Shown here piece after piece: positions 42,156-45,642 of a stretch of 64,000 nucleotides of DNA. Position 1 is the first letter of the stretch, and each line of letters starts with the position of its first letter. The notes below the pieces were generated by a model. That model had not been told where the DNA came from and did not search any database. It saw nothing but the letters and a program-made list of their open reading frames with translations. The DNA comes from Chryseobacterium sp. GVT01B (GTDB taxonomy: Bacteria; Bacteroidota; Bacteroidia; Flavobacteriales; Weeksellaceae): the NCBI RefSeq assembly GCF_019970045.1, contig NZ_JAHXYI010000001.1:310001-374000 (forward strand). The letters are read 5' to 3'. The position numbers and the translations under genes were made by a program.

Positions 42156-43376
42156 ATGTTTGACATTCAGGAAATAAGAAGCCAGTTTTCTATATTGGAC
42201 AGAGAAGTGAATGGTAAACCATTGGTTTACCTGGATAATGCAGCTACATCTCAAAAGCCAAATTCGGTTTTGGAAGTCTGTCACGCATATTATACAGAGC
42301 TTAATGCCAATGTTCACAGAGGAATTCATACTCTAAGCCAGCTGGCTACGGAAGAAATGGAACTTTCAAGAAGAAAGATTCAGAAATTCATCAATGCTGA
42401 ACACGATTTTGAAGTAATTTTTACAAAAGGAACAACTGAAGGGTTGAACCTGATCGCTTATATTTTAACACAGAAACTGCAGAAAGATGATGAGATCATT
42501 ATTTCATATCTGGAGCATCATTCCAATATTGTTCCATGGCAGATGCTTTGTGAAAGAACTGGAGCGAAACTTCGTGTAATTCCTATTGATGAAAACGGAA
42601 TTCTTCAGATGGATCATTTTGATCAGTTTTTAAGCGAAAAAACAAAAGTTGTTTCTGTAAACCAGATTTCCAATGCTTTGGGAATTGTAAATCCTATTGA
42701 AGAAATTATATCAAAAACAAGAAAGCATACAGACGCTTATGTTGTAATTGACGGGGCCCAGTCTGCTCCGCATTTCAATATTGATGTACAGAAGCTGGAT
42801 TGTGATTTCTTTGTGTTCTCAGGCCATAAAATGTATGCTCCTATGGGAACGGGTATTCTGTATGGAAAACGTGAAATATTAGAAGCTTTGCCACCATTTC
42901 ATGGAGGAGGAGAGATGATTGCAACATGTTCTTTTGAAGGAACTACTTATGCAGGTCTTCCATTTAAATATGAAGCAGGAACACCCAATGTAGGAGGAAA
43001 CATTGCTTTAGGAGCTGCTGTTGATTTTATCAACAAGATAGGTCATGCCAACATTCAGAATCATGAAAATGCTTTATTGGAATATGCCCAGAAGCAGCTT
43101 TTGGAAATAGAAGGAATTAAAATCTATGGAGAAAAAGCAAAGAGAACTGGTGTTGTTTCCTTTAACCTTGAAGGTGTGGGAATAGCGTCTGATGTAGGAA
43201 TGATTCTGGACAAAATGGGAATTGCCGTAAGAACAGGACATCATTGTACACAGCCGATTATGAACTTCTTTAATATTGCAGGAACGGTAAGAGCCAGTTT
43301 CGCTGTTTATAATACTTTCGAAGAAATTGATAGTCTGGTAGAAGGGGTTAAGAAAGCCCAACGAATGTTGAGCTAA
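42156..43376 (+). CDS. sufS: Cysteine desulfurase SufS
   Basis: SufS removes sulfur from cysteine for Fe-S assembly using PLP. The 406-residue product has the PLP lysine in FSGHKMYAPMGTG (Lys225) and the active-site Cys364 in RTGHHCTQP, the same number as in E. coli SufS. N-terminal LDNAATSQKP and HRGIHTLS are family signatures. Unlike many bacteria it is not in the suf operon (5.2-9.8 kb) but 32 kb away as a single gene. Confidence 0.96.
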   Translation: MFDIQEIRSQFSILDREVNGKPLVYLDNAATSQKPNSVLEVCHAYYTELNANVHRGIHTLSQLATEEMELSRRKIQKFINAEHDFEVIFTKGTTEGLNLIAYILTQKLQKDDEIIISYLEHHSNIVPWQMLCERTGAKLRVIPIDENGILQMDHFDQFLSEKTKVVSVNQISNALGIVNPIEEIISKTRKHTDAYVVIDGAQSAPHFNIDVQKLDCDFFVFSGHKMYAPMGTGILYGKREILEALPPFHGGGEMIATCSFEGTTYAGLPFKYEAGTPNVGGNIALGAAVDFINKIGHANIQNHENALLEYAQKQLLEIEGIKIYGEKAKRTGVVSFNLEGVGIASDVGMILDKMGIAVRTGHHCTQPIMNFFNIAGTVRASFAVYNTFEEIDSLVEGVKKAQRMLS

Positions 43377-43398: not shown

Positions 43399-43427
43399 AA
43401 AAAGCAGCTGTTGAGCTGCTTTTTTTT
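43399..43427. terminator. Terminator between sufS and the small peptide gene
   Basis: AAAGCAGCT and AGCTGCTTT arms with 4-nt loop, A run before and T run after; flanking genes converge. Confidence 0.9.
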
Positions 43428-43428
43428 A

Positions 43429-43554
43429 TTATTCCCATGAAATGCAATAACACCGGCCGTCAATAATAACCTGGTAGTATCCAATAGCGCATTCAAGGCA
43501 GATTTCTCCACCCGCCATGATGCTTTTCATCTTGTCTTTGTTTAGTTTTTTCAT
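43429..43554 (-). CDS. 41-residue double-glycine-leader peptide (bacteriocin/RiPP precursor-like)
   Basis: The short frame reads ATG to TAA on the minus strand. The first 16 residues, MKKLNKDKMKSIMAGG, form a Lys-rich amphipathic leader ending in Gly-Gly, as in peptides exported and cleaved by C39-peptidase ABC transporters. The 25-residue remainder carries four cysteines at 19, 22, 35 and 37 (CxxC and CxC) plus a Tyr pair and a Trp near the end. Similar short peptides with MKxLxKxxLKxIxGG leaders are common in Chryseobacterium and are annotated as bacteriocin-like. No modification enzyme or transporter gene is in the window. It converges on sufS with a shared terminator. Whether it is expressed and processed is unknown. 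Confidence 0.7.
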   Translation of the reverse strand: MKKLNKDKMKSIMAGGEICLECAIGYYQVIIDGRCYCISWE

Positions 43555-43676
43555 TTGATGTGATTTAAAGGTTACGTCTAAAGGTATAAATAATATGCAA
43601 CATTTCTATTGTTTTATCTTGGGTTTGTATTGGATTTATTTTTATATATAAATATATTATGTAAAATATTATTTCA

Positions 43677-43706: not shown

Positions 43707-44531
43707 ATGAAAAATTCATTTATTTTATTTCTGTGCATTTGTGGAATATGTAATGCTCAAGTCTATTCTGAAGACTTCAACGGCAATGGTTTACCAGCCG
43801 GATGGACGGTAGAAAATCCGGATACAGCTTTTAATTGGAATGTGGGTGCGCAGAATGGCTTCGCAGGCTTTCCTGATGGAGCCGCTTTTTTTGATGATGA
43901 CGATGCAAGTCCAACCGGAATTAATACGAATGCCAGACTGATTTCTCCTGTAATTAATCTTACCGGAGTTGTAAACCCAAAACTGTCGTTTAATTATGCC
44001 AATATGATTGATAATCTTGATTCTACTTTAAAAGTTGAAGTTTTCAATGGGACATCCTGGGTTCAAGTTTTTACTTTTTCGGGAGAAGCAGGGGTATGGG
44101 ATCTTGATTTTAATACCTTATCATATGTGGTAACGTCTTATGCTTCGGCTGTAAATATAGATTTAACACCCTATGTGAATCAGGCTTTTAAAATAAGATT
44201 TGTTTATGACGATGCTGGTGATTATTCTTACGGTGTGGTGGTAGATAATTTGAAAATTACAAGCGGAAATGTTCTGGCTGCTTCGGAGGTCTTACATTCT
44301 GATAATATAGAAATATACCCCAATCCGGTAAAGGATAATATTCATATTAAGCTTGATTCCCGAAATAAAGTAGAAAAAGTTAGTCTCGTTGATATGTCCG
44401 GAAAGCTTGTGAAAACTTTTGATAAAGAATCGAGTTCATATGATCTATCAGATATTCCCAAAGGGGCTTATATCATAATAATTACAAATAATAACCGGAA
44501 AGTGATTAAGAAGAAAATAATAAAGAAATAA
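43707..44531 (+). CDS. T9SS type A sorting-domain protein with adhesin-like domain
   Basis: The 274-residue product has a signal peptide (MKNSFILFLCICGICNAQ), an N-terminal jelly-roll of the cleaved-adhesin/choice-of-anchor type (YSEDFNGNGLPAGWTVEN to YGVVVDNLKITSG) and a C-terminal sorting domain (IEIYPNPVKDNIHIKLD, IPKGAYIIII, KKKIIKK). An Asp-rich stretch FFDDDDAS could bind calcium. It shares architecture with the protein at 30185-31000. It is a single gene, convergent with hemE. Confidence 0.9.
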   Translation: MKNSFILFLCICGICNAQVYSEDFNGNGLPAGWTVENPDTAFNWNVGAQNGFAGFPDGAAFFDDDDASPTGINTNARLISPVINLTGVVNPKLSFNYANMIDNLDSTLKVEVFNGTSWVQVFTFSGEAGVWDLDFNTLSYVVTSYASAVNIDLTPYVNQAFKIRFVYDDAGDYSYGVVVDNLKITSGNVLAASEVLHSDNIEIYPNPVKDNIHIKLDSRNKVEKVSLVDMSGKLVKTFDKESSSYDLSDIPKGAYIIIITNNNRKVIKKKIIKK

Positions 44532-44610: not shown

Positions 44611-45642
44611 TTATAAATTCGGTTTCCAGTCAACAACTGCTCTGATGAATGCCTCAGCATTTTCTACAGGAACATTAGGTAAAATTCCGTGACCTAGATT
44701 GGCAATATATCTGTCTTTTCCGAAACGGTTGATCATCTCATTCACCATTTTCTTGATCGTCTCAGGAGTGGAGTGAAGTCTTGCAGGATCAAAGTTCCCC
44801 TGTAACGTCATTGTGTGATTGGTAAGTGTTCTGGCAAATTCCGGCTTAATAGTCCAGTCTACCCCAAGAGCAGAAGCTTTAGACATTGTCATATCTTCCA
44901 ATGCGAACCAACATCCCTTTCCAAATACAACCACATGAGTAAGCGGGCTTAATGCTTCAACAATCTGGTTGATGTACTGCCAGGAGAATTCCTGATAATC
45001 TGTAGGAGAAAGCATTCCTCCCCATGAATCAAAGACCTGTACTGCAGAAACTCCTTTTTCTACTTTTCTCTTTAAATAAGCGATTGTAGTATCTGTAATT
45101 TTTTGCAGTAATAAATGAGCCGCTTCAGGTTGTTGGAAACAGAAAGACTTTGCAATATCAAATGCCTTGCTTCCTTTTCCTTCTACACAATAACAAAGAA
45201 TCGTCCATGGAGAACCTGCAAAACCAATCAATGGAATATCATTGTCCAGTTTTTGTAGCGTAAGTTCGATAGCATCAAAAACGTAGCCTAAAGTATCATT
45301 CACATCCGGAGTTTCAATATTCTGCACCTGTTCCATTGTTCTGATAGGAGTATCTAACCATGGTCCAACAGATTCTTTCATTTTGAAATCAATCCCCATG
45401 GCCTGTGGCACTACCAGGATATCAGAAAACAGAATCGCTGCATCCAAAGGAAATCTGCGGATAGGCTGTAATGTAATCTCAGCCGCAAGCTCAGGAGTCT
45501 GACATCTTGTAAAGAAATCATACTGATCTCTCAAGGCAATGAATTCCGGCAGATATCTTCCAGCCTGCCTCATCATCCAGACAGGAGGTCTTTCAACGGT
45601 TTCTCCGCGAAGTGCTTTTAAATATAGGTCGTTTTTTATCAT
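44611..45642 (-). CDS. hemE: Uroporphyrinogen decarboxylase
   Basis: HemE converts uroporphyrinogen III to coproporphyrinogen III. The 343-residue product has the N-terminal signature [29 protein letters not shown] with the catalytic Asp, [12 protein letters not shown], and near the C-terminus [14 protein letters not shown]. It is the last gene of the hemA-C-D-E cluster, 47 nt after hemD. Confidence 0.97.

What the first reader, a model, noticed from the sequence alone, without database searches (positions are those of the whole stretch)
43429..43554. Unannotated 41-residue double-glycine-leader peptide with four cysteines next to sufS
A short frame on the minus strand, below usual gene-calling length, encodes a Lys-rich leader ending Gly-Gly and a 25-residue core with CxxC and CxC cysteines. 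Leaders of this shape are used for export and cleavage of bacteriocins and RiPP precursors, and such peptides are common in Chryseobacterium. Here it is an orphan, without processing enzymes nearby. Four cysteines could also form disulfides or bind a metal.
Basis: partly seen in the sequence, partly recalled or inferred. Interest (0 to 1): 0.65.

Follow-up and report, generated by a model that had tools for sequence, protein, structure and literature searches.

The report
Secreted cysteine-rich peptide gene in Chryseobacterium
A real but tiny gene makes a four-cysteine peptide with an export tag; it is one of dozens of similar peptides scattered through this bacterium's genome that probably leave the cell through a shared transporter, so the gene is genuine but of a known kind.

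Summary
The 41-codon frame at 43429-43554 (-) is a genuine gene. Near-full-length relatives occur in 59 of 173 genus genomes, in 54 of those 59 loci convergent with sufS. Of 57 open copies, 56 keep all four cysteines; synonymous changes dominate (median dN/dS 0.13). It reads as ancestral here and repeatedly lost. The leader is of the C39 (double-glycine) type, but the conserved pair is Ala14-Gly15, not the reported Gly15-Gly16, and only a cut after residue 15 puts hydrophobic residues at -12/-7/-4 (56 of 56 versus 0 of 56). It is not an isolated oddity: the genome has 29 leader_Chryseo peptides over NCBI's cut-off and a genus-wide C39 exporter encoded beside a VKOR-thioredoxin protein. Of 10 genus genomes without a close copy of that exporter, 9 have no such peptide; of the other 163, 4 have none. 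Most likely it is exported and cut in trans and becomes a small disulfide peptide outside the cell. Whether it kills or signals is unknown. New member of a known kind.

The parts
43429..43554 (-). 41-codon gene for the peptide precursor (stop included)
   Evidence: relatives in 59 of 173 genus genomes; dN/dS 0.13
43510..43554 (-). leader, residues 1-15, proposed cut after Ala14-Gly15 (the rival site is one residue later, after Gly16)
   Evidence: hydrophobic residues at 4, 9, 12 in 56 of 56; pair 14-15 is AG 53, GG 1, GA 1, VE 1 of 56; leader_Chryseo profile aligned in this register for three relatives, below its cut-off; predicted helix 6-15, low confidence
43432..43509 (-). core, residues 16-41, with Cys19, Cys22, Cys35 and Cys37
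   Evidence: cysteines invariant in 56 of 56 aligned copies; the 57th open copy, L059, lacks Cys35; predicted strands 26-31 and 34-39
43579..43586 (-). promoter -7-like box TACCTTTA, beginning 32 bases upstream of the ATG (that TAnnTTTG is the Bacteroidota consensus is recalled, from no call)
   Evidence: TAnnTTTG at -60..-25 in 26 of 56 copies, mean 1.6 and at most 6 in 500 shuffles; the window itself has the shorter TAnnTTT, as do 54 of 56, for which no shuffle control was run
43399..43424 (.). terminator-like hairpin between the convergent sufS and peptide genes
   Evidence: found on both strands; similar hairpins by eye in the ten downstream stretches printed, not folded
42156..43376 (+). 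sufS, convergent neighbour (context only)
   Evidence: TIGR01979, 579.8 bits
43707..44531 (+). T9SS-sorted protein of 274 aa, divergent neighbour found in some species only (context only)
   Evidence: Por_Secre_tail; no match near the peptide in part of the loci
44611..45642 (-). hemE, next conserved gene upstream (context only)
   Evidence: TIGR01464, 417.3 bits

Best explanation
The gene encodes the precursor of a small secreted peptide. It appears to have its own promoter and ends at a hairpin shared with sufS. The leader (residues 1-15) forms an amphipathic helix whose Leu4, Met9 and Ile12 sit at -12, -7 and -4 and dock on the C39 peptidase domain of a peptidase-containing ABC exporter encoded elsewhere, most likely the genus-wide one at G000:C3:21422-23617. 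The exporter cuts after Ala14-Gly15 and, with the HlyD-family partner encoded beside it, moves the 26-residue core out of the cell. The VKOR-thioredoxin protein of the same locus makes disulfides among Cys19, Cys22, Cys35 and Cys37. The product is one of dozens of Cys-rich peptides sharing this route. Its slow change suggests a conserved target: an intra-genus signal, or a narrow bacteriocin. Shown by computation: the gene, its selection, the leader register, cysteine conservation, and co-occurrence of the exporter with the leader_Chryseo peptide family. Inferred: use of this exporter by this peptide, the exact cut, disulfides, and any outside function.
For: Relatives in 59 of 173 genus genomes, convergent with sufS in 54 of 59 loci. 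dN/dS 0.13. Hydrophobic -12/-7/-4 in 56 of 56 for a cut after 15, 0 of 56 for a cut after 16; a review says one tested C39 domain cannot remove leaders without them (PMC10885120, passages). 29 peptides over the leader_Chryseo cut-off, with 2-6 Cys in 27 tabulated cores, and two C39 exporters. The C3 locus holds VKOR-thioredoxin, C39 exporter, a leader peptide and HlyD. Of 10 genus genomes lacking a close exporter copy 9 have no leader_Chryseo hit; of the other 163, 4 have none (Fisher p 2e-11, not corrected for kinship). [quoted passage not shown] Two of 56 copies carry two extra cysteines, both together.
Against: The window peptide hits no Pfam or NCBIfam model even at E 10, and its best relative stays under the leader_Chryseo cut-off (19.1 versus 23.5 bits), so the exporter co-occurrence concerns a family that it does not formally join. 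Ala at -2 is unusual: 27 of 27 tabulated own-genome peptides have Gly there, and the reviews list GG, GA or GS. No processing gene is adjacent. The co-occurrence may reflect one clade; G069 has 4 leader hits and no C39 domain, and four genomes with the exporter have no leader hit. L056 (VEG) fits neither cut. The model is of middling confidence (mean pLDDT 69). No expression or peptide data.
Confidence: 0.68

Rival explanations
1. Same secreted peptide, but cut after Gly15-Gly16, with one extra residue between the leader helix and the cut.
For: GG at 15-16 in 47 of 56 copies; Gly at -2 in 27 of 27 tabulated own-genome peptides; in the substrates of one studied C39 peptidase -3 is almost always Ala (PMC6363468, passages), which A14 would then be.
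Against: 9 of 56 copies have GT, GR, GD, AR or EG there; the hydrophobic register fails in 56 of 56, because Lys10 is invariant; where the pair 14-15 is not AG it is canonical GG or GA in two of three; peptides with A-G-N at the matching place exist in two other genomes (L124, L125).
Confidence: 0.25
2. A cytosolic zinc- or iron-sulfur-binding micro-protein connected with sufS, using CxxC and CxC as ligands; the leader resemblance is fortuitous.
For: Four strictly kept cysteines and a conserved place beside sufS.
Against: Leader pattern kept in 56 of 56; convergent with sufS, so not in its operon; of 39 examined genomes without the peptide, 37 show sufS in the same stretch, 17 of them with only 91-106 bases to hemE; relatives and paralogues with six cysteines; no PDB sequence match beyond an E of 0.01 and no fold match at E <= 0.001.
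Confidence: 0.08
3. A modified RiPP precursor, its core rebuilt by an enzyme encoded elsewhere (lanthionine, ChrH-like, radical-SAM or ATP-grasp).
For: The genome has a lanthipeptide-like locus with a C39 exporter, one ChrH-family protein and two SPASM-type hits, one over its cut-off. Chryseobacterium graspetides (chryseoviridin) are in print (PMC8939145, passages); ATP-grasp ligases were not searched here.
Against: No Ser or Thr of the core is conserved; the ChrH-like gene has its own candidate precursor with a different N-terminus; the enzymes searched for lie on other contigs or over 200 kb away.
Confidence: 0.12

Closest known systems
NCBIfam NF047798 leader_Chryseo 'bacteriocin-like protein'
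   Same: Short Lys-rich leader with hydrophobic -12/-7/-4, Cys-rich core, same genus, many scattered copies
   Different: Leader 15-16 rather than 18 residues, Ala rather than Gly at -2 if cut after 15, score under the cut-off
Bacteroidetocins (proposed class IIf, PMC6671954; passages)
   Same: Bacteroidota peptide, 15-16 residue leader, four cysteines, C39 exporter and thiol oxidoreductase as export route
   Different: Core 25-26 rather than 42 residues, exporter not adjacent, no shown killing, known here only from conserved relatives at one site
NCBIfam NF047792 CCPGW family putative bacteriocin
   Same: One of 34 aligned members matches weakly (E 0.04), as do two six-cysteine paralogues
   Different: Those paralogues score 20.1 and 25.0 bits against a cut-off of 80
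ChrH (MNIO) peptide of Chryseobacterium (PMC10214503, search listing only; that it is called chryseobasin is recalled)
   Same: Same genus, ribosomal peptide
   Different: Made with a ChrH-type enzyme; the genome's one such gene has its own candidate precursor

Membership tests
leader_Chryseo (NF047798) | whole-protein score at or over 23.5 bits | tested here: not met
   window peptide: no hit at E <= 10; 19 of 34 members of A1 hit weakly, best 19.1 bits
leader_Chryseo (NF047798) | match running to the GG-type end of the profile | tested here: inconclusive
   the three matches shown cover profile positions 5-15 of 18 only
C39-exporter (double-glycine) substrate | hydrophobic residues at -4, -7, -12 before the cut | tested here: met
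   56 of 56 for a cut after 15, 0 of 56 after 16; rule from PMC10885120 (passages)
C39-exporter (double-glycine) substrate | GG, GA or GS at -2/-1 | tested here: inconclusive
   canonical only if read at 15-16 (GG, 47 of 56); at 14-15 it is AG in 53 of 56
C39-exporter (double-glycine) substrate | a C39 exporter in the genome | tested here: met
   two in the own genome; the C3 exporter gives a best E printed as 0 in 162 of 173 genus genomes, a partial match in G129, and clearly weaker ones in ten
C39-exporter (double-glycine) substrate | actual cleavage and export | not testable with these tools
   needs protein chemistry
Bacteroidetocin | adjacent C39 exporter, oxidoreductase and membrane protein | tested here: not met
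   neighbours are prs, rplY, sufS, a T9SS protein and heme genes; the two C39 exporters are on contig 3 and over 250 kb away on contig 11
Bacteroidetocin | four cysteines and a mature part of 42-48 residues | tested here: not met
   four cysteines yes, core only 25-26 residues
rSAM-modified GG peptide (TIGR04149) | score over 25 bits | tested here: not met
   no hit
rSAM-modified GG peptide (TIGR04149) | radical-SAM partner nearby | tested here: not met
   SPASM-type hits lie on contigs 35 and 36; other radical-SAM types were not searched

The most novel reading that the evidence does not exclude
Chryseobacterium runs a genus-wide peptide secretome: one core C39 exporter with a dedicated VKOR-thioredoxin oxidase serves dozens of unlinked, slowly evolving disulfide peptides that act as conserved signals or envelope factors rather than arms-race bacteriocins, and this peptide belongs to a subclass cut at an Ala-Gly instead of a Gly-Gly site.
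Probability: 0.25. Interest if true: 0.6.

Novelty: new member of a known kind. Interest (0 to 1): 0.35.

Why it matters
It shows that a sub-threshold frame is a conserved gene, that NCBI's curated leader model misses this lineage of the peptide repertoire, and that 'orphan' peptides in this genus can be tied to a plausible exporter by co-occurrence. If confirmed, one exporter deletion would expose a large set of extracellular disulfide peptides.

Tried and rejected
Family and structure searches gave no family for the window peptide: 0 hits at E <= 10 in Pfam and NCBIfam; four PDB sequence matches with the profile, best E 0.01, a ubiquitin ligase. Fold comparison of the AF2 model gave 0 matches at E <= 0.001 (74 up to E 10, 50 printed). 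Many of those printed are complement C9 and EGF-receptor chains; not used as evidence. A functional tie to sufS was considered and rejected (see rivals).

Three weak matches in the sufS-hemE stretch of genomes without the peptide (G016, G053, G167) looked like remnants. They lie in or across an unrelated frame of up to about 220 codons and were rejected.

Is this peptide unusually well kept? Not by this test: a control peptide of the same genome (from L088) matches at E < 1e-9 in 64 of 173 genus genomes, against 59 for this one. The control's gene order was not checked.

Rows dropped before counts. One search used 56 of 59 loci: L031 and L039 have no ATG in frame, and L059 was left out by my cut; L059 is open, 46 residues, and lacks Cys35. 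The sufS tree used 91 rows, 51 with the peptide: of the 59 loci five had no sufS in the stretch (L011, L025, L051, L053, L059) and three a short match (L031, L037, L054); L061-L065, L067, L069 and L070, other peptides or no peptide found, were not used; its 'pep' label includes L039, whose leader is disrupted. L058 has a long branch, so its place is unsure. One search tabulated 27 of the 29 peptides over the cut-off (left out: L100, no such frame at the matched place, and L108, printed without its start). One search's set of 32 was chosen by a pattern in loci mostly brought in by the leader_Chryseo profile, so it leans to GG. One search counts at most 27 matches a genome. One search used 32 of 56 copies. 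In one search G129 (75% complete, partial exporter match) counts as having the exporter; the shuffles there keep base content only.

Genomes without the peptide: of 111 (173 less 59 less three with fragments) 39 were looked at, plus G015, which has a fragment elsewhere; the other 72 were not.

Literature: searches listed no paper on this peptide or on dispersed leader peptides of Chryseobacterium; several listings were cut (for example 15 of 281, 10 of 6,501), and the library lacks most subscription journals. Seen: passages of PMC6671954, PMC10885120, PMC6363468 and PMC8939145; PMC10214503 as a search listing.

Full report
Observation. The frame at 43429-43554 on the minus strand encodes exactly the 41 residues described. 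It lies between sufS (42156-43376, +) and hemE (44611-45642, -), with a T9SS-sorted protein gene (43707-44531, +) in between. A hairpin at 43399-43424 reads as terminator-like on both strands.

It is a gene. A search of 173 genus genomes found matches at E < 1e-9, over residues 1-3 to 37-41, in 59, the window's own genome included. Of these 59 loci 57 are open from an ATG. In 54 of 59 the gene faces sufS with about 37-64 bases between them; in the other five sufS was not in the fetched stretch, in two because the contig ends. Over 56 aligned copies (50 distinct proteins) Cys19, Leu20, Cys22, Gly33, Cys35 and Cys37 never vary, and median pairwise dN/dS is 0.13 (1036 pairs). The 57th open copy (L059) lacks Cys35. 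Compared with sufS on the same species pairs, the peptide has somewhat higher synonymous differences and several-fold higher, but still low, non-synonymous ones (32 copies). A TAnnTTTG box lies 25-60 bases upstream in 26 of 56 copies against a mean of 1.6 in shuffles, and the shorter TAnnTTT, which the window has, in 54 of 56. That this is the Bacteroidota promoter consensus is recalled.

History. In a family-wide search of 320 genomes, strong matches were confined to the genus; four other genera gave weak hits only. Named relatives include Chryseobacterium rhizoplanae, viscerum, culicis, indologenes, panacisoli and shigense. Of 39 genomes examined without the peptide, 37 show sufS in the stretch next to hemE. 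In 17 of these only 91-106 bases separate the two; the other 20 have 63 to 2010. No remnant survived a second look. Three further genomes keep fragments and two have no ATG in frame at the start. On a sufS tree of 91 rows the peptide needs 16 changes (shuffled mean 29.9). With one conserved site in all parts of the tree, I read this as ancestral presence and repeated loss; the count alone cannot tell gain from loss.

The leader. Across 56 copies that pair is GG in 47 and GT, GR, GD, AR or EG in nine. The pair at 14-15 is AG in 53, GG in 1, GA in 1 and VE in 1. A review states that one C39 peptidase, LahT150, cannot remove leaders lacking hydrophobic residues at -4, -7 and -12 (PMC10885120, passages). 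A cut after residue 15 puts hydrophobic residues there in 56 of 56; a cut after 16 does so in 0 of 56, because Lys10 is invariant. The leader_Chryseo profile, where it matches three relatives below its cut-off, aligns in the first register. Against it, Ala at -2 is unusual: 27 of 27 tabulated own-genome peptides have Gly, and of 32 pattern-matched own-genome leaders none is AG. But a separate lineage in two other genomes carries ITAGNAPCC, AG followed by Asn, at the matching place (L124, L125). I hold the AG site as more likely, not proven.

The repertoire and the exporter. The genome holds 29 hits over the leader_Chryseo cut-off on 11 contigs, with Cys-rich cores (27 tabulated: 16 with six, nine with four, one with five and one with two cysteines). 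Two C39 exporters are present. One lies with lanthipeptide-type enzymes. The other, on contig 3, lies with a VKOR-thioredoxin fusion, a leader peptide and an HlyD-family protein. This resembles the bacteroidetocin loci, where a thiol oxidoreductase and a C39 exporter accompany a four-cysteine peptide (PMC6671954, passages). The contig-3 exporter gives a best E printed as 0 in 162 of 173 genus genomes; G129 has a partial match, and in ten the best match is clearly weaker, 1e-225 to 1e-73. Nine of those ten have no leader_Chryseo peptide over the cut-off, against four of the other 163 (Fisher p 2e-11, no correction for kinship). The exception, G069, has four such peptides and no C39 domain. The peptide studied here scores under that family's cut-off, so this link reaches it by resemblance only. 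That C39 peptidases serve precursors encoded elsewhere has been argued for graspetides (PMC8939145, passages).

The core. Two copies (L049, L058), apart on the tree, carry two extra cysteines, at alignment columns 29 and 44, both together, and related paralogues have six. Paired change fits disulfides better than a four-ligand metal site, though two cases are few and L058's place on the tree is unsure. The AF2 model (mean pLDDT 69, blocks 21-30 and 31-40 at 86 and 83) shows a leader helix at 6-15 and strands 26-31 and 34-39; the fold search found nothing significant.

Is it special? A control peptide of similar size matches in a similar share of genus genomes (64 of 173 at E < 1e-9). So this peptide looks typical of its repertoire. 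Slow change of the core argues mildly against an arms-race bacteriocin, but does not exclude one.

Verdict. A real, conserved, secreted-type peptide gene, new as a member, of a kind already recognised by NCBI's family models. Its cut site is probably one residue off, and its orphan state is explained, on inference, by export in trans.

Noticed in passing
G000:C3:19720-25216 (L118:7721-13217): Exporter locus: VKOR-thioredoxin fusion, C39 ABC exporter, one leader peptide, HlyD-family protein; the exporter's best E is printed as 0 in 162 of 173 genus genomes.
   Followed up: yes
G000:C11:83433-91994 (L119:3434-11995): Lanthipeptide-like locus: a LanC-like protein, a second one by eye, a luciferase-like protein by eye, a LanB-type dehydratase and a second C39 exporter. 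Peptides with GG or GS leaders and a C-terminal CC lie at C11:215-216 kb (L121).
   Followed up: partly
G000:C22:426038-426697 (L191): ChrH-family (MNIO) gene with a 73-residue candidate precursor ending GYGCPACGMG.
   Followed up: no
G000:C33:272.8-274.1 kb (L120) and G000:C35:420-423.5 kb (L122): Tandem arrays of four or more leader peptides with different Cys-rich cores.
   Followed up: no
G199:C7:302.8-304.0 kb (L129): Tandem array of five leader peptides in another genus of the family.
   Followed up: no
window 43707-44531: T9SS-sorted protein gene between the peptide and hemE, matched in some species and not in others.
   Followed up: partly
G016, G053, G070, G167: sufS-hemE stretch (L135, L152, L143, L154): A frame of up to about 220 codons of unknown kind fills the sufS-hemE gap in these four genomes, which lack the peptide.
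   Followed up: no
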